The position numbers and the translations under genes were made by a program. Below, in pieces: positions 7,934 through 53,367 of a stretch of 64,000 nt of DNA. The stretch is taken from NCBI RefSeq assembly GCF_001620265.1, contig NZ_CP012661.1, positions 2,418,001 through 2,482,000 of the forward strand. Reading direction: 5' to 3'. The stretch's first letter is position 1, and each line of letters starts with the position of its first letter. Below the pieces are notes generated by a model. It searched no databases and was not told where the DNA came from. It saw only the letters and a list, made by a program, of their open reading frames with translations. This DNA is from Frigidibacter mobilis. Its GTDB lineage: Bacteria; Pseudomonadota; Alphaproteobacteria; Rhodobacterales; Rhodobacteraceae.

Positions 7934-8018
7934 TTCTGACACGACAGGCCAGCAGTCCCGCAAGTGGAAAGGGCCGCACCCCTTTCGGAACGCGGCCCCA
8001 AATCGGCAATCAGCTCTC

Positions 8019-9089
8019 TCAGGCCTCGGTCACATCCTCGGCGTCGCCCTCGGTCGCGGCGAAGTCGAGCCCGTGGCTGGCGCGGACCTTGTCCTCGATT
8101 GCCAGTGAGACATCGGGATGGTCGCGCAGGAACTGCTTGGCATTCTCGCGGCCCTGGCCGATGCGCTCATCCCCGTAGGAATACCAGGCGCCGGATTTCT
8201 CGACGATGCCGGCCTTTACACCGAGGTCGATGATCTCGCCGACCTTCGAGATGCCCTCACCATACATGATGTCGAATTCCACCTGCTTGAAGGGCGGAGC
8301 AACCTTGTTCTTGACCACCTTCACGCGCGTGGAGTTGCCGACCACCTCATCCCGGTCCTTGATCGAGCCGATGCGGCGGATGTCGAGCCGGACCGAGGCG
8401 TAGAACTTCAGCGCATTGCCGCCGGTGGTGGTTTCGGGGCTGCCGAACATCACGCCGATCTTCATGCGGATCTGGTTGATGAAGATCACCATGCAGTTGC
8501 TGCGCCCGATGCTGGCGGTCAACTTGCGCATGGCCTGGCTCATCAGGCGGGCCTGGCTACCCATCTGCATGTCGCCCATGTCGCCTTCCAGCTCGGCCTT
8601 GGGCGTCAACGCGGCGACCGAGTCGACCACCACCAGGCTGACCGCGCCCGAGCGCACCAGCGTGTCGACGATCTCCAGCGCCTGCTCACCCGTGTCGGGC
8701 TGCGAGATCAGCAGCTCGTCAAGGTTCACCCCCAGCTTGCGGGCATATTGCGGGTCAAGCGCGTGTTCGGCATCGACAAAGGCGCAGACCCCGCCCTTCT
8801 TCTGCTCTTCGGCCACCACATGCAGCGTCAGCGTGGTCTTGCCCGAGCTTTCGGGGCCATAAATCTCGATGATCCGCCCCTTGGGCAAGCCACCGATGCC
8901 AAGCGCAATGTCGAGCCCCAGCGAGCCGGTTGAGGTCGCCTCGATCTCCATCACCGGGTTGTTGAGCCCCAGCCGCATGATGGAGCCCTTGCCGAACTGC
9001 CGTTCGATCTGGGCCAGGGCGCTGTCGAGCGCCTTTTGCTTGTCGGTATTGCGCTTGTCGGTCATGTCGAAGAGGTTCGCCGCTGCCAT
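8019..9089 (-). CDS. recA: DNA recombinase RecA
   Basis: ATP-dependent strand-exchange protein; it also drives LexA self-cleavage in the SOS response. It has 356 residues, normal length. The Walker A loop GPESSGKTT is at about 78-86. The core has [14 protein letters not shown], the [14 protein letters not shown] segment and the L2-loop region with [19 protein letters not shown]. An acidic C-terminal tail ([12 protein letters not shown]) is present. The ATG at 9089 has an AAGGAAC ribosome site. A GTTC-N7-GTTC SOS box lies 62 bases upstream, indicating LexA control of the alphaproteobacterial type. Confidence 0.99.
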
Positions 9090-16637: not shown

Positions 16638-17348
16638 TCATGCAAGCGGTAGGGCCAACTCCGCGTAATGTACGGCGATCCTGACCGTGCCAGTCGCAAA
16701 ACTGCCGCCAGTGGCGGTCAGCAGCAGCCCTGTCGGCTCATAATACGTCATCGGTGCAGACAGAACCCCTCGTGCCCAGGATCCCTCGTCCAGCCCGAGG
16801 CCCGAACCAAAGCGGTCAGGTGCTCCCGCATTGCCCAGCTGCCAGTTGCTCAGGCTGCCGGTGAACGTGGCGGTCACCCGGGCCGTCACCCCGAACACGA
16901 TCGCGCCCGACGGGATCAGGATCGCAGTCGTTGAACTCGTCCCTACCGTCAGCACATGGTCGATCTGCGCCACACCAAACGACATCCCCGCCCCGGAAGG
17001 TGCAAGCGTCGCCGCTCCCGTCCGCCATTCGGTGCCGTCATGGATCGCTGGCACGCCTTCGTCCCGGATGAACCCCCGCCACCCAGGCTTCGGCTCGGCA
17101 AACATCCAGCCGCCATTGGCCCGGATCGCCAGCTCCCCCTCATGCCCTGCCCAGGCATTCACCGCACCCGGCGGAACCGCGTAGACGGTGCCATCCATCG
17201 AAGCGGTTGGCGGCAGGGACACAGCCCGCGAAACGATGACCAACTGCGCAAGCCCGTCCAGCCGCATCAGCGCATCGTTCATCGTGACATGCTTTTGCGC
17301 CTGAGAGGCGCGCAACAGAGGCAGCGAAAGCTGGCTTGTGTCAGTCAT
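16638..17348 (-). CDS. DUF2793 protein, GTA-associated
   Basis: A 236-residue protein at the 3' end of the GTA locus. It starts MTDTSQLSLPLLRASQAQKH; the QAQKHVTMNDALMRLDGL stretch and the segment with W-x-G-x-E...G-W..A are typical of DUF2793. It resembles phage tail or fibre accessory proteins, with a C-terminal beta-rich part. The ATG at 17348 overlaps the gp15 stop by 8 bases, indicating translational coupling. It may be a surface or tail-fibre component; its role in GTA particles is not firmly known to me. Confidence 0.8.
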   Translation of the reverse strand: MTDTSQLSLPLLRASQAQKHVTMNDALMRLDGLAQLVIVSRAVSLPPTASMDGTVYAVPPGAVNAWAGHEGELAIRANGGWMFAEPKPGWRGFIRDEGVPAIHDGTEWRTGAATLAPSGAGMSFGVAQIDHVLTVGTSSTTAILIPSGAIVFGVTARVTATFTGSLSNWQLGNAGAPDRFGSGLGLDEGSWARGVLSAPMTYYEPTGLLLTATGGSFATGTVRIAVHYAELALPLA

Positions 17349-20300
17349 TGATCTCGATCCCCTCGAACGGGCCAGGTCCGAACGCATCGGACAGTTGTGC
17401 CACATGAATCTCAAAACCGTCCGACGCATCGTCGGCCGTCCGTTGCGCCGCCGTATAGCTCCACTGCGGCGCGCTCACCGTCTCTTCGCGTTGGATCTGT
17501 CCGGCCACGACCACCCGCACCACATAGGCCTCGCGCGTCTCGCCAAGCGGCACTTCCACCGAAACCCAGCTATCGCCCTCGATCCGGGTCCGGCGGATCC
17601 AGCTCAGCATTCCGCCGCCAGCACCATCCGGCGTCCACGCCAGATGGCACGGCGAATAGGGCCGCAGTCCGATCCCGCCGAATGCCTCCACCAGATGCAC
17701 ATAGGACGGATCGTCATATCCCCGCACGGCGGAGCCGATCCGGTAGTGCCGAGCCAACCCGCGGGCCGAGGCGTTCAGCGTGACCTGCTGCAACGCACTG
17801 TCGAGGCGCACGAGGTAGCTGCCGACCGGCCATTCGTCAGGCATGTCGGCATCTGTTCCAAGCTGGCCCCGCAGCCGCAGGTCAAGCTCGTAGACCCCAT
17901 CGCCCACCAGCACTGCGCGCTGGCATTGCAGCACCTCCCACCCCGCAGAGGCACCGGACCCGATTGCAAAGCTGTTGGCACCGTTCAGGACAGCGTCCTC
18001 ATCCGCCGACGAAAGCGTGCCACCGAAAACCTGCACGCGCAGCGGCGCTCCCAGATCCCAGCTATCCGGCGCCGCCCGCGGCAAGGGCGTCAGCGTCACG
18101 CCGATCACGGCACGCATGGAAATCAGCGTGTTCAGCTCATAGCCCGCATCGCTGGCCGAGGAGTAGACCGCCACCGTTCCCGGCCAGGGTGTCGCCGTCA
18201 CGGCCAGATGCGGCGCATGGGGCACTTCCCCCCCGGTCAGCAGCGGCAAGTCCAGAAACTGAGGGAACACCGGCAATGGCGCCGCAAAGGGCTTGGGTGC
18301 AACACGCTCCTCCGCCTCGTCAGACGCCCTATAAACCCCCGGCTCCACGCGCACCGCCTCGATCTCCGCCGCCCCCGCGACCTCGACCCGGTCGATGCGG
18401 TAAAGCCCCTGCTCGCGCCCGTCCTCCGCCTCCAGCCGCAGCACGTCCCCCGCCCCGAGCCAGGTCTGGGACGGCGGCAGTGACAGGCGCACCCCATCCC
18501 TGGCCACCCGCACCTCGGCCAGCCAGCGCTCGGTGATGCCCTGAGCCTCGGCGGAGGTGAGCGCCAACGGGAACTCGGTCTCCGCGATGACGCGCGACTC
18601 GGCATCGGGCAAGATAGCCTCGACAGCCCGCGTCTCGAAATCGCCCTGGGCTTCCACAAAGGTCAGCCGGATCCGCTCTGCCAGATCTGCCTGAGAGGCG
18701 CGCGTCAACTCCACCGCCGCGCGCCCCGCCTCGGCGCCGCGCGCCAACGTTTCCGGCCGCACCGTAGCCTTGGCCACGCCGCGCCGCATGCGGAACCGCA
18801 GCATGCCGTCGCGTTCGATGGCATCGAACCCATAAGCCAGCATCAGCGGCTGCAGTGCCGAGCGCGCACTGCCGCTGTCCGAGGTGACATAGCCACGCAC
18901 CCCCCCGTAAAGCTCAGACACGTCAATCAGCGTCTGCCCCGACCGCCCGCAGATCTCGGCCACCACATTGCCGAGCGGCTGCGCGGTCGTTCGCCCGCTG
19001 ATCCAGTGCCCACGAGTCCAGTTATCGCCATCCGTCCAGAGCGCCACATCATTGGGAAACTGCGGGTAGGGTCGCGCATCCCAGGCCCAGACATGCGCCC
19101 GGTCCATATCCACCATCGGCCCGCCATACAGGTCGGAATCCGGGTTCTTCGCCGGATCGGTCCAGAAATCGCGCATCGCCCGCAGATACTGCATCTGCAT
19201 GAGGTCATCGCGGCGCCCGTTGGAATAATACGGCAAATCCGATTCCGACGACCGCGGGTCCAGGAACTTGTTGGGCTGGTTGCCGCCCTTGTCGATCGCG
19301 GCGCAGCCCATCTCGGTGAACCAGATCGGCTTCGAGCGCGGCACCCAACCGGTCGGTACCGCCTGCCGCACGCCGCCGATGCGCTCGTGATGCGCATTTT
19401 CCCACCAGCCGCGGATATCCTTCACCCGCCACACCCAGGGCTCGCCATAGTCCCCGTCGGTGATCGGGGTACGGATCTGCGCGTCGCGGTGCTCGGCATG
19501 GGCATAGTACCAGTCATAGCCCTCGCCGCCCGCTATATTGGCCTTCAGGTAGTCAAGGTTGTAGATCGCCCCCCAGCCAGCGTCTGCATGGTCGGTTCCG
19601 TCCCGCCAGTCCGACACCGGCATGTAATTGTCGATGCCGATGAAATCGACGGCCTCGTCAGCCCAAAGCCGGTCGAGGTGGAAATAGCGATTGCCCTCGC
19701 CCGCATCGTATCCCGCATATTCGCTCCAGTCGGCCGCATAGCCGATCTTGGTCTGCTCTCCCAGGATCGCCCGCACCTCCCCCGCCAGCTGCCGCAGCTG
19801 CTCCACCGCGGGGAAACTGTCACCGGCACCGCGGATCTGCGTCAGCCCGCGCATCTCTGAGCCAATGCAGAACCCGTTCACCCCGCCCGCAGCCTTGCAT
19901 AGCCAAGCATAGTGCAGGATGAACCGCCGGTAGGACCATTCCTCCGGCCCGTGGTAGGAAATCGTCGGCGGATTCCCCGGTTCGGTTCCCAGTGGTCCCA
20001 GCACGGCCGAAGTGGAAAAATCTCCCGCCCCGGCCTGCCCGAAGAATGCAGCAACCTGTTCCCCCGCCAGCGCACTGCGGTCGGGCGTTCCCTCGGTCCC
20101 CGGCGCCGCCGACAGCGTGATGCGCCCGCGCCAGGGCAGAGCCGGCTGATCTTCCGCTCCGCTCCAGGGGTCGGTGCGCCCGTTGCCCGCCAGCTGCTCC
20201 ATCAGGATGAACGGGTAGAACACCACCTGCTTGCCCGCCGCCTTCATCGCCCGGATCGCCTCGATCACCGAGGCATCGGCCGGGGTGCCGCCATAGACCG

Positions 20301-21303
20301 GCCGCCCCCCGATCCGCGGCACCGCCAGCGCGCTGCTCCGCGCCAGGCCATTGACGCGCCAGGGATAGTCCGCGCCGTCGAATGCCTTCTGCTCCACCTT
20401 CGGCCGCAACTTGCACTGCGCGCAGCGCAGGTCGTCCCCGAACCACGACACCACCAGCGACACCGACCCGCAATTGGGCAACTCGTTGCCGAGCGCATCC
20501 AGCGAGGTCAGGAAGTCGGTCCTGCCACTTGCCGTGTTCACATTGGCGCTCTCGCCCACCCCGGGGCCCTTGCAGTAATGCACCGGCCGCGTCGCCAGCG
20601 CATATTCGCCTGTCCCCGGAATCATCGCCACGGCCCTCACGCCGCGGGTCAGGTCCTCCACCACCTCGCCAATCGCCGGCCCCTGCGCCGGCCGGATCAC
20701 CTCGAACGAGAATTGCGGCACCCGGTTCCCGAAGGGCGCAAGGGCCAGGTTCTCGAACACAACATAGGCCGTCCCGCGATAGGCCGGCGCCAGCCCCGCG
20801 CCCTCCACCGCCTCGATCTTCGGGTCCGGCAGCTGATCCTCGCTGCCCCGGTAGACGCGCATCTGCACATCATCCTTCGCAATCTCGCTGCCATCCGCCC
20901 AGATCCGCCCGATGCAGGTGATCTCGCCCTCGCCCACCGCAATCGCCAGGCTGACAGAATAGCTGTAGCTGGTGACGGTCGTGCTTGGCGCACCCTTGCC
21001 ACCCACCTCATCCTTCTTCTTGGTCTCGATGAAGGGCGAGGCCCAGATCACCTGCCCGCCCACCCGCATCCGGCCCCAGACCACGCCCAACGGCGCGCCC
21101 TCGCTGGCACCCGTGAGCCGGAAGCGGTCGATGCGCCCGGTCTCGACCGAGCTCGACCCCGCCCCCATCAGCCTCTGGTCGATCACCCGGCCAAGGGTGG
21201 CGCCCACGGCGCGGCCGATCACGGCCCCCGACAGGCCAAGGATGGTCCCGCCGAACCCCGCACCAAGGGCCGCACCGGCAGCCGCAAACAGAATGGTGGC
21301 CAT
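17341..21303 (-). CDS. GTA gp15: host-specificity / TIM-barrel tail tip protein
   Basis: A 1320-residue tail-tip 'megatron' homologous to the Rhodobacter capsulatus GTA g15 product (Rcc01698). It starts MATILFAAAGAALGAGFGGT at 21303. An N-terminal phage-tail region with Gly/Ala-rich helices (about 1-60) is followed by DRFRLTGASEGAPLGVVWG. A GTA TIM-barrel glycoside-hydrolase-like region lies about 290-700 (GFCIGSEMRGLT, FIGIDNYMPVSDWRDG, PIWFTEMGCAAIDKGGNQPN). Phage-tail and C-terminal Rcc01698-like domains follow. Full length and uninterrupted. The start overlaps the gp14 stop by one base. Confidence 0.92.
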   Translation of the reverse strand: MATILFAAAGAALGAGFGGTILGLSGAVIGRAVGATLGRVIDQRLMGAGSSSVETGRIDRFRLTGASEGAPLGVVWGRMRVGGQVIWASPFIETKKKDEVGGKGAPSTTVTSYSYSVSLAIAVGEGEITCIGRIWADGSEIAKDDVQMRVYRGSEDQLPDPKIEAVEGAGLAPAYRGTAYVVFENLALAPFGNRVPQFSFEVIRPAQGPAIGEVVEDLTRGVRAVAMIPGTGEYALATRPVHYCKGPGVGESANVNTASGRTDFLTSLDALGNELPNCGSVSLVVSWFGDDLRCAQCKLRPKVEQKAFDGADYPWRVNGLARSSALAVPRIGGRPVYGGTPADASVIEAIRAMKAAGKQVVFYPFILMEQLAGNGRTDPWSGAEDQPALPWRGRITLSAAPGTEGTPDRSALAGEQVAAFFGQAGAGDFSTSAVLGPLGTEPGNPPTISYHGPEEWSYRRFILHYAWLCKAAGGVNGFCIGSEMRGLTQIRGAGDSFPAVEQLRQLAGEVRAILGEQTKIGYAADWSEYAGYDAGEGNRYFHLDRLWADEAVDFIGIDNYMPVSDWRDGTDHADAGWGAIYNLDYLKANIAGGEGYDWYYAHAEHRDAQIRTPITDGDYGEPWVWRVKDIRGWWENAHHERIGGVRQAVPTGWVPRSKPIWFTEMGCAAIDKGGNQPNKFLDPRSSESDLPYYSNGRRDDLMQMQYLRAMRDFWTDPAKNPDSDLYGGPMVDMDRAHVWAWDARPYPQFPNDVALWTDGDNWTRGHWISGRTTAQPLGNVVAEICGRSGQTLIDVSELYGGVRGYVTSDSGSARSALQPLMLAYGFDAIERDGMLRFRMRRGVAKATVRPETLARGAEAGRAAVELTRASQADLAERIRLTFVEAQGDFETRAVEAILPDAESRVIAETEFPLALTSAEAQGITERWLAEVRVARDGVRLSLPPSQTWLGAGDVLRLEAEDGREQGLYRIDRVEVAGAAEIEAVRVEPGVYRASDEAEERVAPKPFAAPLPVFPQFLDLPLLTGGEVPHAPHLAVTATPWPGTVAVYSSASDAGYELNTLISMRAVIGVTLTPLPRAAPDSWDLGAPLRVQVFGGTLSSADEDAVLNGANSFAIGSGASAGWEVLQCQRAVLVGDGVYELDLRLRGQLGTDADMPDEWPVGSYLVRLDSALQQVTLNASARGLARHYRIGSAVRGYDDPSYVHLVEAFGGIGLRPYSPCHLAWTPDGAGGGMLSWIRRTRIEGDSWVSVEVPLGETREAYVVRVVVAGQIQREETVSAPQWSYTAAQRTADDASDGFEIHVAQLSDAFGPGPFEGIEIND

Positions 21304-21755
21304 CACGACCCTCCCGTGGGAAAAGCAAAGCGCGCCGCGATCCGGCGCTGCCAGGGGTCCGAAAGCGGGCTTTCCAGCACCGCATGGCCCGAATAGGCGT
21401 GGATGAACGCGGCGCTCTCGCCGGCCCGCGACAAGATCCCCAGATGCTTGGCGACGGACCCGGCCCGCATCCGGAACAGCAGGACCTCGCCCGGCCTCGC
21501 CGCCGCCCCCGCAGGGCATTCCCGCAAATGCCGCCGCGCCGCGGCCCACAGCCGCTCCTCGCGCGCAGGCTCGGACCAATCGGCGGTATAGGCCGGCACC
21601 GGCTCGGGCTCGTCGCCGTAGACCTCGCGCCAGACGCCCCGCAGCAGGCCAAGGCAATCCGCGCCCCCGCCCCGAACCGAGGCCTGGTGGCGATAGGGCG
21701 TGCCGATCCAGCCCCGCGCCGCCGCCACGATCCGCTCTGCACTCGCGCCCGTCAT
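21303..21755 (-). CDS. GTA gp14: NlpC/P60 cell-wall peptidase
   Basis: A 150-residue cysteine peptidase of the NlpC/P60 class in the GTA tail, expected to open peptidoglycan during DNA delivery. The nucleophile Cys lies in SVRGGGADCLGLLRGVWRE (about residues 32-50) after the RGWIGTPYRHQ segment. The catalytic His is probably in VAKHLGILSR. The ATG at 21755 overlaps the gp13 stop as ATGA, giving translational coupling. Intact. Confidence 0.9.
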   Translation of the reverse strand: MTGASAERIVAAARGWIGTPYRHQASVRGGGADCLGLLRGVWREVYGDEPEPVPAYTADWSEPAREERLWAAARRHLRECPAGAAARPGEVLLFRMRAGSVAKHLGILSRAGESAAFIHAYSGHAVLESPLSDPWQRRIAARFAFPTGGS

Positions 21756-22621
21756 GACTTGCCCCTCGCCGCCTTCATCGGGGTGATCGTCAGCCAATCC
21801 TCGCCCGGGATATGCGGAAAACCACGAAAGTTCATGAAGTTCTGAAACTTTAGGCGACAAGTCTCACCCCGCTTGTCGCAGCCCGCCTCCAGCCGCAGCA
21901 GATCGCCCTCCGCCACCGGCGCCCGCAGTTCCTGCCACAGCTCGACGCTGCGCCCCCCCGCCTCCAGCCGGTCGTTCTTGATACTGCCCCACAGCCCCGC
22001 GGCGGCACCGCTCAGCACCGACAGCCGGCCCTTCTCGAACCAGCGATCCTCGAATTCGGGCAAGGCCGGCAGCCGGAAGACAGCACCGCCGTCCGGCTCG
22101 CTCGCCGCCACCTCCACCCGGTAGCCCGGCTGCGCCAGGTCGAACCGGCAGCGCGCATCGCCCAGCACCGCACTGCACCCGGACAGGAAGATCCGGCCCT
22201 GCGCGTGGTTCAGCGGCTCGGACAGCCCGCGCAATTCCGCGGTGAACGCCCCGCCCGCCCGCGTCAACTCTCCCAGCGAGCCGCGAAACTGCAAAAGCCG
22301 CGCCTCGGGATCGGCCCAGTTGACCAGCCAGGCCCGCACATCGGCCCCGTCAAAGCGTCCGGCCAGGATATCGGCCTCGGAAATGGCATCGCTGCGCAGC
22401 GCGCCATAAGCCTCGCTGTTGTCTACCGCCAGCCCCGTGCTCTGCGCCAGCGCCCGCGCGGTGATGCCGCTGTCGGCACGAAACACGATGCCCTCGAAGC
22501 TCAGGTCGCGGTCGTGGTCGGTAAAGCCCAGCACCACCCCATCGCCGCGCATCACCGCCCAGCAACGGCACACCGTGCTCGCCCCGCCGGCCAGATGCGC
22601 GAACAACCCTTCCGCGCTCAT
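21752..22621 (-). CDS. GTA gp13: DUF2163 tail protein
   Basis: A 289-residue baseplate/tail-hub protein of the DUF2163 family (Rcc01696-like). It starts MSAEGLFAHLAGGASTVCRC; the VLGFTDHDRDLSFEG stretch and the C-terminal block with SGCSAVLGDARCRFDL and GCDKRGETCRLKFQNFMNFR, Cys-rich with the family FRGFPHIPGEDW ending, are diagnostic. In RcGTA this is an iron-sulfur hub protein; the Cys residues here are conserved. The ATG at 22621 overlaps the preceding chimeric stop as ATGA, the normal gp12-gp13 junction. Intact. Confidence 0.9.
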   Translation of the reverse strand: MSAEGLFAHLAGGASTVCRCWAVMRGDGVVLGFTDHDRDLSFEGIVFRADSGITARALAQSTGLAVDNSEAYGALRSDAISEADILAGRFDGADVRAWLVNWADPEARLLQFRGSLGELTRAGGAFTAELRGLSEPLNHAQGRIFLSGCSAVLGDARCRFDLAQPGYRVEVAASEPDGGAVFRLPALPEFEDRWFEKGRLSVLSGAAAGLWGSIKNDRLEAGGRSVELWQELRAPVAEGDLLRLEAGCDKRGETCRLKFQNFMNFRGFPHIPGEDWLTITPMKAARGKS

Positions 22622-22941
22622 ATCCGCACCTCGACCACCGGCAGCGCCACCCGCTTGGCCCGCCCCGCATCCAGCGGCCGCGCGCCCTCCACCTGCATCC
22701 GCACCCATTCGGCCCCGGCGCGGGTTTTCCCCGCGCCGCGCCCGCCCATGATGACCCAGGTTTTCCAGGCCCCTTCGGGCGGCAGCTGATGCGGCAGCGC
22801 CCAGAATTCGAACAACCAGGGCAGCGCCATCAGCGCCCCGTCGCCAAGCCCGCCCAGGAACTCGTCAATCTGCTCCGGCGTCGCGCAGGCGAGCCAGGCG
22901 GCGCCCGATTTCAGCGCGTGCAGCGTCGAAGTCGAGCGCAT
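22618..22941 (-). pseudogene. Chimeric remnant: GTA large terminase N-terminus joined to the end of gp12
   Basis: A 107-codon frame that begins as GTA terminase (TerL, g2): MRSTSTLHALKSGAAWL, then ALPWLFEFWALPHQLPPEG and Walker A WVIMGGRGAGKTRAGAEWV. It runs to GRAKRVAL, where intact TerL continues with VGET. Here the next residues are PVVEVRI and stop, which match the extreme C-terminus of gp12 (DUF2460 family). The usual ATGA overlap with gp13 follows. So one deletion removed most of TerL, the portal, protease, capsid, head-tail, tail tube and tape measure genes and nearly all of gp12. The ATPase and nuclease domains are incomplete. An assembly collapse is possible but the join is clean and in frame. 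Confidence 0.88.
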
Positions 22942-23188
22942 AGTCGTGAACGATCCCTGCGGTCTGTCGTCCAAGCTTTTCAACCCGCGTCCTTTCTTCC
23001 ATCGCCATCTGGAAGGCCGATTTCAGGTCACGAACCGAAACCGCGGCCTCCTTGGCCTTCTGGTAATTGCCGATCTTGATCTCGTGGATCACCCAGGCCA
23101 GGCTGCGTGCCGCGTCATCAAAATGCTCCAAGGTCTCCGAAAGCAGATGTTTCGGAGCCGCATCTCCTGCGGGAAAGATCAGTGTCAT
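22865..23188 (-). CDS. GTA gp1: small terminase-like protein
   Basis: A 107-residue GTA g1 homologue: MTLIFPAGDAAPKHLLSETL, EIKIGNYQKAKEAAVSVRDL, and a helical C-terminus ending EIGRRLARLRDAGAD. In RcGTA this is the small terminase that aids DNA packaging. It is the first gene of the GTA cluster. Its 3' end overlaps the chosen TerL start by 77 bases. No promoter was recognised in 23189-23384. Intact, but without a full TerL partner in this locus. Confidence 0.85.
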   Translation of the reverse strand: MTLIFPAGDAAPKHLLSETLEHFDDAARSLAWVIHEIKIGNYQKAKEAAVSVRDLKSAFQMAMEERTRVEKLGRQTAGIVHDYALDFDAARAEIGRRLARLRDAGAD

Positions 23189-23441: not shown

Positions 23442-24641
23442 TCAATTGGCGGGCGGAGCCTCCGCCGGCTGCACCGTCTGCGGCACCGCCTGCGTCCCCT
23501 GCTGCCGCTCGATCTCGCGCCAGCGCGCCACGTTCTGGTTATGCTCGGCCAGCGTCCGCCCGAAGGCGTGCCCGCCGGTGCCATCGGCGACGAAGTAGAG
23601 GTAGTCCGACTGTTCCGGGTCCAGCGCCGCGGCAATCGACTCGCGCCCCGGATTGGCAATCGGCGACGGCGGCAACCCGTCGATCACATAGGTGTTGAAC
23701 GGCGTCTCGCGGCGCAGCTCGCTCTGCCGCAGCCCGCGGCCCAGGGGCCCTTGGCCATTGGTAATTCCGTAAATCACCGCCGGGTCCGTCTGCAGCCGCA
23801 TTCCCTGCCGCAGCCGGTTCACGAACACGCTCGCCACCCGCCGCCGCTCGGTCGGAACCCCGGTTTCCTTCTCGATCAAGGAGGCCATGACCAGCGCCTC
23901 TTCCGGCGTGTCATAGGGCAGCCCGTCCACCCGGTTCGCCCACAGCTCCGCCAGCGTCGCCGCCTGGCGCCGCGCCATCTCATCGAGCACGGTCTGCCGC
24001 CCGGTGCCCCGCGTCACCTCATAGCTGTCGGGCGCCAGCGTTCCCTCCGCCGGCACCGCGCCCAGTTCGCCCTGCAGGAACTCCGCCCGCTTCAGCGCCT
24101 CGACCACCTGCCAGCTCGTCGCGCCTTCCGCCAGCGTCACCCGGAACCGCACATCGGCAGTTTCGGCAATGTCCACATAGGCTTCCGGGGCAGCGGTCGT
24201 GGCCGGATCGAACTTCGCCACTTCCACGTAGCGGTTCGTCTCCGGGTCCAGCTCGCGCACCAGAACCTCGGCGACCAGCACCCCGATCCGGTAGTTGATC
24301 TCGGTCCCGCAGGTCGATTGCCCGCCCTTGGTAATCACATCGACGATCTCGGTCATCGAGGCATGGGGGGCAATCAGGTAGGAGCCGAACTTCAGTTGAT
24401 TGGCGCGGTCGGTGTAATCCGCGCCCACCCGGAACACATAGCCCGAGGTGATCGCGCCCTGCGCCTCAAGATCGTCCGACACGCGGCGCAGGCTCGCCCC
24501 CTGGTCGACGCGCAGGCAAATCGCCTGCGCCAGCGGCCCGGGCTGCGTGAACTGCCGCTGCCCCCAGGCCACGACCCCGCCCGCCGCGACCAGGATCACG
24601 ATGGCCAGCGTCAGGAAGTTGGACGCGAGGGACCGCCACAT
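23442..24641 (-). CDS. mltG: Endolytic peptidoglycan transglycosylase MltG
   Basis: A 399-residue inner-membrane enzyme (YceG/MltG) that cuts nascent glycan strands and sets their length. One N-terminal transmembrane helix (LASNFLTLAIVILVAAGGVVAWG, split here only for description, residues 5-27) is followed by a LysM-like region (PGPLAQAICLRVDQGASLRR). The YceG catalytic domain holds LMASLIEKETGVP-type motif VMASLIEKETGVPTERRRVA with the catalytic Glu, QTDPAVIYGI, and YNTY-type FNTYVIDGLPPSPIANPG. The ATG overlaps the fabF stop by one base. Confidence 0.95.
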   Translation of the reverse strand: MWRSLASNFLTLAIVILVAAGGVVAWGQRQFTQPGPLAQAICLRVDQGASLRRVSDDLEAQGAITSGYVFRVGADYTDRANQLKFGSYLIAPHASMTEIVDVITKGGQSTCGTEINYRIGVLVAEVLVRELDPETNRYVEVAKFDPATTAAPEAYVDIAETADVRFRVTLAEGATSWQVVEALKRAEFLQGELGAVPAEGTLAPDSYEVTRGTGRQTVLDEMARRQAATLAELWANRVDGLPYDTPEEALVMASLIEKETGVPTERRRVASVFVNRLRQGMRLQTDPAVIYGITNGQGPLGRGLRQSELRRETPFNTYVIDGLPPSPIANPGRESIAAALDPEQSDYLYFVADGTGGHAFGRTLAEHNQNVARWREIERQQGTQAVPQTVQPAEAPPAN

Positions 24642-25903
24642 CAGCCCGCCACCTTGCCCAGCACAAGGCTGGCATTGGTGCCGCCAAAGCCGAAGCTGTT
24701 GGACAGCGCCACGTCGATCTTGCGCGCAACCGCCTTGTTGGGCGCGAGGTCCAGCTTGGGCTCCACCGCGGGGTTATCAAGGTTGATGGTCGGCGGCGCG
24801 ATCTGGTCGCGCAGCGCCAGCACGCAGAAGATCGCCTCCACCGCGCCCGCAGCCCCCAGCAGGTGCCCGATGCTCGACTTGGTCGAGGACATCGTGGTCC
24901 CCGCTGCCGAGTTGCCCAGGAGCCGCTCCACCGCAGCCAGCTCGATCGTGTCGGCCATCGTCGAGGTGCCATGCGCGTTGATGTAATCCACATCCCCGGG
25001 CGTGATCCCCGCCCGCTTCAGCGCGGCCGACATGCTGCGGAACGCGCCGTCGCCATCCTCGGCCGGCGCGGTGATGTGATAGGCATCGCCCGACATCCCG
25101 TAGCCCAGCACCTCGGCATAGATCCTAGCGCCGCGCGCCTTGGCGTGCTCGTATTCCTCCAGCACCACCACGCCCGCGCCCTCGCCGATCACGAACCCGT
25201 CGCGGTCCGCGTCATAGGGGCGGCTGGCCTTGGTCGGCTCGTCGGCGCGCTTGGTCGACAGCGCCTTGCAGGCATTGAACCCGGCCACGCCGATTTCGCT
25301 GATCGGGCTTTCGGTGCCGCCCGCGATCATCACATCGGCATCGCCCCACTGGATCAGCCGGCTGGCATCGCCAATGGCATGGGCGCCGGTGGAACAGGCG
25401 GTCACGACCGCATGGTTCGGCCCCTTGAAGCCATAGCGGATGCTGACCTGCCCCGAGACGAGGTTGATGAGTGCACCCGGAATGAAGAAGGGCGACACCC
25501 GCCGCGGGCCCTTGTCGCGGATCATCAGCGCGGTTTCGGCAATGGAGTTCAGCCCGCCGATGCCCGAGCCGATCATCACGCCGGTGCGCTCGCGGCCCTC
25601 GTCATCCTGCGGCATCCAGCCCGCATCCTCGACCGCCATCTGCGCGGCGGCCATCCCGTAGAGGATGAAATCGTCCACCTTGCGGCGGTCCTTCGGCTCC
25701 ATCCAGTCATCGGGGTTGAAGGTGCCGTCGCTGCCATCGCCGAACGGCACCTCGCAGGCATATTTCGTCAGCACGTTCGTTGCATCGAACCGGGTGATCG
25801 GGCCTGCGCCCGATTGCCCCGCCAGAAGCCGCGACCAGGTCGCCTCCACTCCGCAAGCCAGCGGCGTGACCATACCCAGCCCAGTGATAACCACTCGACG
25901 CAT
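24641..25903 (-). CDS. fabF: 3-oxoacyl-ACP synthase II (KAS II)
   Basis: Condenses malonyl-ACP with acyl-ACP in fatty-acid elongation. The 420 residues start MRRVVITGLGMVTPLACGVE at 25903, the family start; an upstream in-frame ATG at 25939 adds 12 residues with no family match. Active Cys lies in VVTACSTGAHAIGDA. The two His are in INAHGTSTMADTIE and SSTKSSIGHLLGAAGAVE, and NSFGFGGTNASLVLGK closes the fold. It lies upstream of mltG. acpP, fabG and fabD precede it, with an arginase-family gene's neighbour at 25946 interposed. Confidence 0.96.
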   Translation of the reverse strand: MRRVVITGLGMVTPLACGVEATWSRLLAGQSGAGPITRFDATNVLTKYACEVPFGDGSDGTFNPDDWMEPKDRRKVDDFILYGMAAAQMAVEDAGWMPQDDEGRERTGVMIGSGIGGLNSIAETALMIRDKGPRRVSPFFIPGALINLVSGQVSIRYGFKGPNHAVVTACSTGAHAIGDASRLIQWGDADVMIAGGTESPISEIGVAGFNACKALSTKRADEPTKASRPYDADRDGFVIGEGAGVVVLEEYEHAKARGARIYAEVLGYGMSGDAYHITAPAEDGDGAFRSMSAALKRAGITPGDVDYINAHGTSTMADTIELAAVERLLGNSAAGTTMSSTKSSIGHLLGAAGAVEAIFCVLALRDQIAPPTINLDNPAVEPKLDLAPNKAVARKIDVALSNSFGFGGTNASLVLGKVAG

Positions 25904-25945
25904 CGGCTTCTCCGTATCCAGTTCCTGCCTTCGTGGCACCTGATA

Positions 25946-53243: not shown

Positions 53244-53290
53244 GTTCTGGTCCAAATATCCCGGGGGGTCCGGGGGGCTGGCCCCCCGGC
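53244..53290 (+). repeat. CAAATATCC-type intergenic repeat, copy 3, with GC hairpin
   Basis: CGTTCTGG then TCCAAATATCCCGGGGGG, then the hairpin GGGGGGC-TG-GCCCCCC, in the ndk/ABC-F divergent space. Copy 4 near 58.88 kb shares the CGTTCTGG lead. Confidence 0.6.
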
Positions 53291-53367
53291 CTCCGCCAGC
53301 CACGCAACATCGCCCTTGCCGCCCGGCGGCAATTGACCTTCGCGCCCCCATCAGGCAGGGAGACGCC

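What the first reader, a model, noticed from the sequence alone, without database searches (positions are those of the whole stretch)
22618..22941. In-frame TerL/gp12 chimera marks a deletion of the GTA capsid and tail core
Seen: the terminase frame is intact through Walker A up to GRAKRVAL and then changes, in frame, to PVVEVRI-stop, which looks like the end of gp12, with the usual ATGA overlap to gp13. Known: GTA loci of Rhodobacterales run g1 to g15 in fixed order. Inferred: one deletion removed most of TerL, the portal, protease, capsid, head-tail, tail-tube and tape-measure genes and almost all of gp12. Cells would be GTA-defective from this locus.
Basis: partly seen in the sequence, partly recalled or inferred. 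Interest (0 to 1): 0.85.

Follow-up and report, generated by a model that had tools for sequence, protein, structure and literature searches.

The report
Gene transfer agent disabled by deletion
One clean deletion has cut the middle out of the gene cluster with which this bacterium's relatives build gene-transfer particles; similar losses recur in its family, and in many other lineages one identical cut has left a long fused gene that still looks alive.

Summary
At window 22643/22642 (minus strand) residues 1-100 of the GTA large terminase (TerL) are joined in frame to the last seven residues of g12 (PVVEVRI). Five relatives, four of the same genus, are uncut here; 8,196-8,484 bp are missing. 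The join shares 2 bp with both parent ends. No long match to the missing DNA, and no TerL or portal family match, was found in the 4-contig genome. g1, g13, g14 and g15 are open with low dN/dS, so the loss looks recent. GTA loss is already in print, so this is a new case of a known kind.

Outside the window lies something stranger. In 16 of 394 family genomes, plus two more, the cluster is cut to one exact in-frame fusion: TerL 1-170 joined to megatron 655-end. Fifteen of 18 frames are full length (827-904 codons). They are not one clade (AU p 1.8e-54), several sit beside relatives without the fusion, and the join is not a strong DNA repeat. Either one join formed repeatedly, or an old allele persisted beside uncut clusters. 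The window's join is a separate, private event.

The parts
22865..23188 (-). g1, small terminase-like protein (107 aa), open
   Evidence: Open frame; aligns to the frame at the same place in G001, G002 and G003, dN/dS 0.10, 0.24 and 0.15. That g1 is the small terminase of RcGTA is recalled (the title of PMC6854486 was seen in a listing).
22618..22941 (-). TerL/g12 fusion frame: TerL residues 1-100 with Walker A, then the last 7 residues of g12
   Evidence: 98% identity to G001 TerL residues 1-100; weak PF03237 match, E 0.011 and below the cut-off, over residues 78-103 of the longer frame.
22642..22643 (-). deletion junction; 2-bp microhomology (TG) shared by both parent ends
   Evidence: Same breakpoint against five uncut relatives; missing 8,232, 8,268, 8,484, 8,374 and 8,196 bp. 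Parent ends are read from relatives, not from this strain's own ancestor.
21752..22621 (-). g13, baseplate hub protein, open
   Evidence: TIGR02218 E 1.1e-89; PF09931 and PF09356; dN/dS 0.14-0.22.
21303..21755 (-). g14, NlpC/P60-type cell wall peptidase, open
   Evidence: TIGR02219 E 3.1e-51; no Pfam match at E 1; dN/dS 0.17-0.22.
17341..21303 (-). g15, megatron baseplate protein (1320 aa), open
   Evidence: NF048004 1863 bits over the whole length; PF13547, PF13550, PF23666; dN/dS 0.13-0.16.
23442..24641 (-). host gene next to the cluster, called mltG here (name recalled); locus marker
   Evidence: Found near the cluster in 14 of 15 fusion genomes whose flank was read (not G098) and in 3 of 6 uncut loci checked (L033, L035, L143; not L034, L141, L144).
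24641..25939 (-). host gene called fabF here (name recalled), second locus marker

Best explanation
An RcGTA-type head-tail cluster lost its middle in one illegitimate recombination event. The break joined codon 100 of TerL to the last seven codons of g12 with 2 bp of microhomology, removing about 8.2-8.5 kb: the rest of TerL, portal, protease, capsid, connectors, tail tube, tape measure and nearly all of g12 (shown by comparison with relatives). The join is in frame and keeps the ATGA overlap into g13, so g13-g15 could still be translated (inferred). Without capsid, portal, tube and packaging motor no GTA particle can be made from this locus (inferred), and no second copy was found (shown for TerL, portal and the deleted DNA). 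Low dN/dS in what remains suggests that the deletion is recent compared with the split from Frigidibacter albus (inferred).
For: Junction and flanks against five uncut relatives; gene content of the missing stretch in G001; no TerL or portal family match and no long match to the missing DNA genome-wide; only a TerL stub by profile and by protein; TerL open frames of 483, 483, 483 and 501 aa in the four congeners; remnants open with dN/dS 0.04-0.24 against G001-G003; genome in 4 contigs of 4,738,298, 139,976, 90,059 and 19,278 bp, completeness 99.98, contamination 2.32.
Against: No reads were available, so a mixed culture cannot be excluded. In one search only 40 of 819 first-look candidates were scored. 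Capsid, tail tube and tape measure were not searched with their own families in the own genome. Low dN/dS in g13-g15 would also fit continued use of the remnants; the megatron shows at most a hint of faster amino-acid change (Fisher p 0.069 against G001, 0.53 against G002).
Confidence: 0.95

Rival explanations
1. Assembly artefact: the middle block is really present and was collapsed out.
For: No reads could be inspected.
Against: Only 2 bp are shared at the join, so there is no repeat to collapse; no long match to the block was found on the four contigs, and TerL and portal are absent.
Confidence: 0.03
2. The remnant is not dead: g1, the TerL stub and g13-g15 are kept because they still do something, as the long TerL-megatron fusion of other genera seems to.
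For: g1 and g13-g15 are open with low dN/dS; elsewhere in the family a shortened GTA locus is kept as a coding gene.
Against: The window fusion is not that gene: it ends before Walker B, has no megatron part and does not match the junction profile. A recent deletion gives the same low dN/dS.
Confidence: 0.12
3. The deletion allele was acquired from another lineage by recombination rather than formed here.
For: Not excluded by the flanks alone.
Against: No other genome examined has this join: none of the 45 other matching genomes, and none of the 80 loci kept (of 329 found), matches beyond residue 101 of the 107.
Confidence: 0.03
4. For the family-wide TerL170/megatron655 fusion: one ancient fusion allele persisted next to uncut alleles, with recombination wiping out its own history on both sides, instead of many independent formations.
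For: Eighteen genomes share the join at codon resolution, which is hard to get by chance; the join is not a favoured DNA repeat (at best 208th among direct-repeat diagonals in 23 of 23 uncut loci).
Against: For eight fusions with a chosen sister lacking the fusion, mean identity is higher to that sister than to other-clade fusions in 11 of 12 distance bins right up to the join; the exception is 15-30 nt on the megatron side (0.725 against 0.728), and single fusions such as G271 go the other way in some bins. In 12 of 12 bins fusions are no nearer to other-clade fusions than to unrelated loci without the fusion. One clade is rejected on TerL-N plus megatron-C. G127 and G114, which hold the full order, show no mltG in the fetched flank, so not all uncut clusters need lie at the same place.
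Confidence: 0.4

Closest known systems
RcGTA-type head-tail gene cluster (Rhodobacter capsulatus GTA and Rhodobacterales relatives)
   Same: Gene order g1, TerL ... g12, g13, g14, g15 (order recalled, and read in G001); baseplate hub, peptidase and megatron families match over their curated cut-offs. Five relatives are uncut at this point; the gene content was read in G001.
   Different: Most of TerL, g3-g11 and nearly all of g12 are gone, so it is a remnant of the family and not a working member.
Pseudogenised or lost GTA clusters of Alphaproteobacteria (PMC10883770, passages seen)
   Same: [quoted passage not shown] The window is one more case.
   Different: The passages seen name no internal in-frame deletion or TerL fusion ('fusion' occurs 0 times in its main text); here the breakpoint is mapped to the base against close uncut relatives.
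TerL(1-170)/megatron(655-end) fusion locus found here in 18 other genomes
   Same: Same kind of cut, with the TerL N-part and Walker A kept and the head and tail core gone; near mltG in 14 of 15 genomes whose flank was read.
   Different: Fused to megatron, not g12; about 840 aa with Walker A and Walker B; the join is shared by many genera. The window fusion is 107 aa and private.

Membership tests
Functional RcGTA-type GTA | Complete large terminase (ATPase plus nuclease) | tested here: not met
   Only residues 1-100 remain; no PF03237 match in the genome.
Functional RcGTA-type GTA | Portal, capsid, tail tube and tape measure genes | tested here: not met
   Encoded in the 8.2 kb missing here; portal family absent; no long match to the missing DNA elsewhere. 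Capsid, tube and tape measure were tested only through that DNA search.
Functional RcGTA-type GTA | Baseplate genes g13-g15 | tested here: met
   TIGR02218, TIGR02219, NF048004 over cut-off.
Functional RcGTA-type GTA | Particle production and gene transfer | not testable with these tools
   Needs cultures.
Decayed GTA cluster | Close relatives keep the block that is missing here | tested here: met
   Five of five relatives aligned across the junction.
TerL170/megatron655 fusion | TerL through Walker B joined to megatron residue 655 | tested here: not met
   G000 has no match to the junction profile at E 1e-46; its TerL stops at residue 100 and its megatron is whole.

The most novel reading that the evidence does not exclude
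GTA loss in Rhodobacteraceae is not only random decay. One exact in-frame cut, joining TerL just after Walker B to the megatron at residue 655, has been formed repeatedly (at least 8 changes forced on the GTA-gene tree, at least 5 on the rpoB tree) or kept as a very old allele beside uncut clusters, and its product, a roughly 840-residue ATPase-core/baseplate fusion, is a selected gene of its own, perhaps one that protects GTA non-producers or blocks GTA or phage assembly. The window would then be a different, early route to the non-producer state.
Probability: 0.5. Interest if true: 0.88.

Novelty: new member of a known kind. Interest (0 to 1): 0.5.

Why it matters
Why GTA clusters persist although producers lyse is an open question (Redfield and Soucy 2018, PMC6209664, abstract and passages seen; PMC10883770, passages). 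A recent, base-mapped natural deletion with uncut congeners gives a matched pair for measuring what losing GTA production costs or gains. The recurring TerL-megatron fusion, if it holds up, would mean that some non-producers are not simply empty but carry a defined, conserved product, which is testable by knockout and by strain-level surveys.

Tried and rejected
Search for a second copy or translocation of the missing block: TerL family, portal family, TerL stub protein, missing DNA; none found. Of the 41 short matches, 32 fall on one dispersed repeat of about 50 bp that lies inside G001's block; they are not GTA genes.

Search for the TerL/megatron fusion in plasmid and phage records: 0 of 16 plasmid records and 2 of 193 phage records cover 80% or more of the query; 12 rows of each were listed. 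One of the two phage records, Roseobacter phage RDJL3, was opened: the match lies within one annotated protein of the full megatron size, so it is not the fusion. The other was not in the rows listed.

Homology hotspot for the fusion: rejected. In 23 of 23 uncut loci the join pair is at best 208th to 2302nd among direct-repeat diagonals.

Spread of the fusion by transfer of a short tract: not supported (ungapped comparison, eight fusions with chosen sisters; G268's nearest sister G007 itself has a different, private GTA deletion, but the parts compared are present).

First rpoB tree is invalid: seven rows fell on a branch some ten changes long, which I took as antisense frames. It was redone with frames that hold an RpoB motif: 49 rows, FastTree, drawn without supports; same 49 rows, IQ-TREE quick: 10 changes of the fusion label, starred branches force at least 5. 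In one search five fusions, G168, G340, G271, G107 and G244, form one supported group (98), which speaks for one origin of those five. The TerL-N plus megatron-C tree (42 rows, 11 changes, at least 8; 44 rows, quick method, 10 changes, at least 9) splits them. G073, G151, G104 and G139 are not in it because their parts are too short, and G000 is not because its TerL was cut too short for the tree set. The AU test was run on a group named by the fusion.

Strain-level polymorphism could not be tested: the genome set holds one genome a species. The genus of G120 held one genome. In the genus of G083, 3 of 46 genomes carry the fusion, and I had no searches left to map its congeners. Structure prediction was not used.

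Full report
What was claimed.

Minus strand 22941-22618 encodes 107 residues from ATG: the start of a GTA large terminase with its Walker A (GGRGAGKT), then PVVEVRI, and a stop that overlaps the next start as ATGA. g13, g14 and g15 follow, each over the curated cut-off of its NCBIfam model (searches also place g13 and g15 as tail proteins). g1 lies just upstream.

The deletion. Four congeners (G001-G004) hold a TerL open frame of 483-501 aa. I took stretches of 19.5-20 kb from these four and from G014, another genus of the family, and aligned them to the window. In all five the alignment breaks at the same base, window 22643/22642, and resumes 8,196 to 8,484 bp further on. In G001 the missing stretch encodes the remaining 356 residues of TerL, portal (TIGR01537), protease (TIGR01543), HK97 capsid (TIGR01554), connector (TIGR02215), head completion (PF05521), tail tube (TIGR02126), PF11836 and PF09550 tail proteins, the RcGTA tape measure (NF058675) and the g12 protein (TIGR02217) up to its last seven residues. 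The parent ends share TG at the join, a 2-bp microhomology. An in-frame join is expected one time in three, so the frame itself is no surprise.

Nothing was found moved elsewhere. The own genome, 4,987,611 bases in 4 contigs, gives no PF03237 match (15 of 15 candidates scored), no PF04860 match (1 of 1 scored), only the stub with a ten-member TerL profile, and with the 8.2-kb DNA of G001 only matches of 25-79 bp (40 of 819 candidates scored). So no particle can be built from this locus; that cells are GTA-negative is inference.

How old. g1, the TerL stub, g13, g14 and g15 are open. Their dN/dS against G001-G003 is 0.04-0.24; the neighbouring mltG gives 0.15. Megatron changes on the G000 side are slightly richer in amino-acid changes than on the G001 side (58 to 157 against 23.7 to 110.3; Fisher p 0.069 on rounded counts) but not against G002 (p 0.53). 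The deletion is therefore recent, or the remnants are still constrained; the data do not separate these.

How common. Of 329 related loci the best 80 were kept. Of these 80, 64 had at least 9 kb after TerL and 16 ended early; 60 of 64 had all seven marker genes sought and 4 of 64 did not: Tabrizicola rongguiensis (L048), Rhodobacteraceae bacterium QY30 (L056), Rhodobacter sp. SW2 (L081) and a Tabrizicola MAG (L083), each with its own pattern of loss. In 149 family genomes, one a genus, 135 have a TerL match (E 1e-20) and 134 a megatron match. Odd rows there led me to fetch 19 loci. G127 holds the full order with an in-frame gap in TerL; G078 and G114 hold the full order. I did not follow up every weak row (G012, G016, G022, G026, G034, G175 and others), so these counts are lower bounds.

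The shared fusion. Ten of those loci have the same structure: TerL 1-170 joined in frame to megatron 655-1318 (L031 numbering). A 120-column profile across the join finds it in 16 of 394 family genomes and, around G083, in 3 of 46 genomes of that genus and 0 of 32 genomes of other families: 18 genomes in all. mltG lies near it in 14 of 15 genomes whose flank was read (not G098; G167, G444 and G464 not read). The join is W-x-D-E, the end of the TerL Walker B, followed by x-G-C of the megatron strand WFTE-x-GC (the Walker B assignment is recalled). The Walker A and W-x-D-E patterns with which I looked for the frames were found in 18 of 18. Fifteen of 18 stop-to-stop frames are full length (827-904 codons, 643-655 after the join); G083 and G340 are broken, and G167 runs off its contig. 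Of the 18, eight were scanned: 8 of 8 match Terminase_6N, GTA_TIM, Phage-tail_3 and Rcc01698_C, 8 of 8 match only GTA_megatron in NCBIfam (the one member whose table was shown falls below the cut-off), and one member each gives a weak hit to two defence models, which I take as noise. The megatron half of the one member searched matches the solved RcGTA chain 6tba_8A.

Selection on it. Three pairs of neighbouring fusions from different genera have dN/dS 0.178 (G107/G244), 0.277 (G172/G405) and 0.277 (G120/G165), with 2-4 gap columns over 832-846 codons; G444/G464, of one genus, give 0.084 with saturated dS and 39 gap columns. These open frames hold no stops, where neutral change would give on average 21-37 per lineage in a simple simulation. 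If the fusion was already in each pair's ancestor, it is a maintained coding gene. If the fusions formed later, the constraint would be that of the parent genes.

Where it came from. The fusions are not one clade. On a tree of TerL-N plus megatron-C with the columns next to the join removed, the label needs 11 changes, starred branches force at least 8, and 0 of 200 bootstrap trees hold it together; holding the 16 together costs 495.6 log units (AU p 1.8e-54). On the host gene rpoB the label needs 10 changes and starred branches force at least 5. Several fusions sit beside a relative without it in both trees: G098 with G013, G365 with G111, G132 with G062, and G268 with G007; G007 itself carries a different, private deletion. 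G271 sits with uncut G154 in the GTA tree but with four other fusions in the rpoB tree, and G071 with G066 in the first but not in the second. Near the join, fusions are on average nearer to their chosen sister than to other-clade fusions (TerL side 0-15 nt 0.875 against 0.806; megatron side 0-15 nt 0.725 against 0.649), with one of 12 bins showing no difference (15-30 nt, 0.725 against 0.728) (eight fusions). The join is not a strong DNA repeat in any of 23 uncut loci. So identical joins exist with local flanks and no evident recombination hotspot. Two readings remain: selection or an unknown site-specific process formed the same join many times, or an old allele has been kept in populations with recombination on both sides. 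One genome a species cannot decide this.

Relation to the window. The window's join is not of this kind: TerL ends at residue 100, before Walker B, megatron is whole, and the profile does not match. It is a private and probably young loss in a family where such losses recur.

Literature. Loss and pseudogenisation of GTA clusters in several alphaproteobacterial lineages, and the idea of non-producers as cheaters, are stated in PMC10883770 (passages). The limits of GTA maintenance are modelled in PMC6209664 (abstract and passages). I found no paper on a TerL fusion or on this genus's GTA in ten searches of titles and openings (the listing showed 8 of 11). I opened passages of four papers (PMC6821227, PMC10883770, PMC6209664, PMC7947584); the rest I saw only as listings.

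Noticed in passing
L126-L135, L145-L150, L304, L305 (18 genomes): Identical in-frame fusion of TerL 1-170 to megatron 655-end, full-length open in 15 of 18, not one clade.
   Followed up: yes
L031 about 7979-8027; window about 53247-53295; other chromosome sites listed: A dispersed repeat of about 50 bp lies inside the GTA cluster of Frigidibacter albus and has 32 matches across the window's chromosome among those listed.
   Followed up: no
L306 (own contig C2, 90,059 bp, first 12 kb): These 12 kb match a plasmid of Leisingera thetidis (NZ_CP109792.1) at 95.9% identity over 94%, with type IV secretion genes under the match, suggesting recent plasmid exchange within the family.
   Followed up: no
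L136, L137, L138, L139, L140, L142, L048, L056, L083: Private internal GTA deletions; six of the joins keep only the last third of megatron (from residues 928 to 1204), so the 3' end of the cluster often survives.
   Followed up: partly
L141 (G127): GTA cluster with full gene order but a TerL that lacks profile positions 336-383, frame still open.
   Followed up: no
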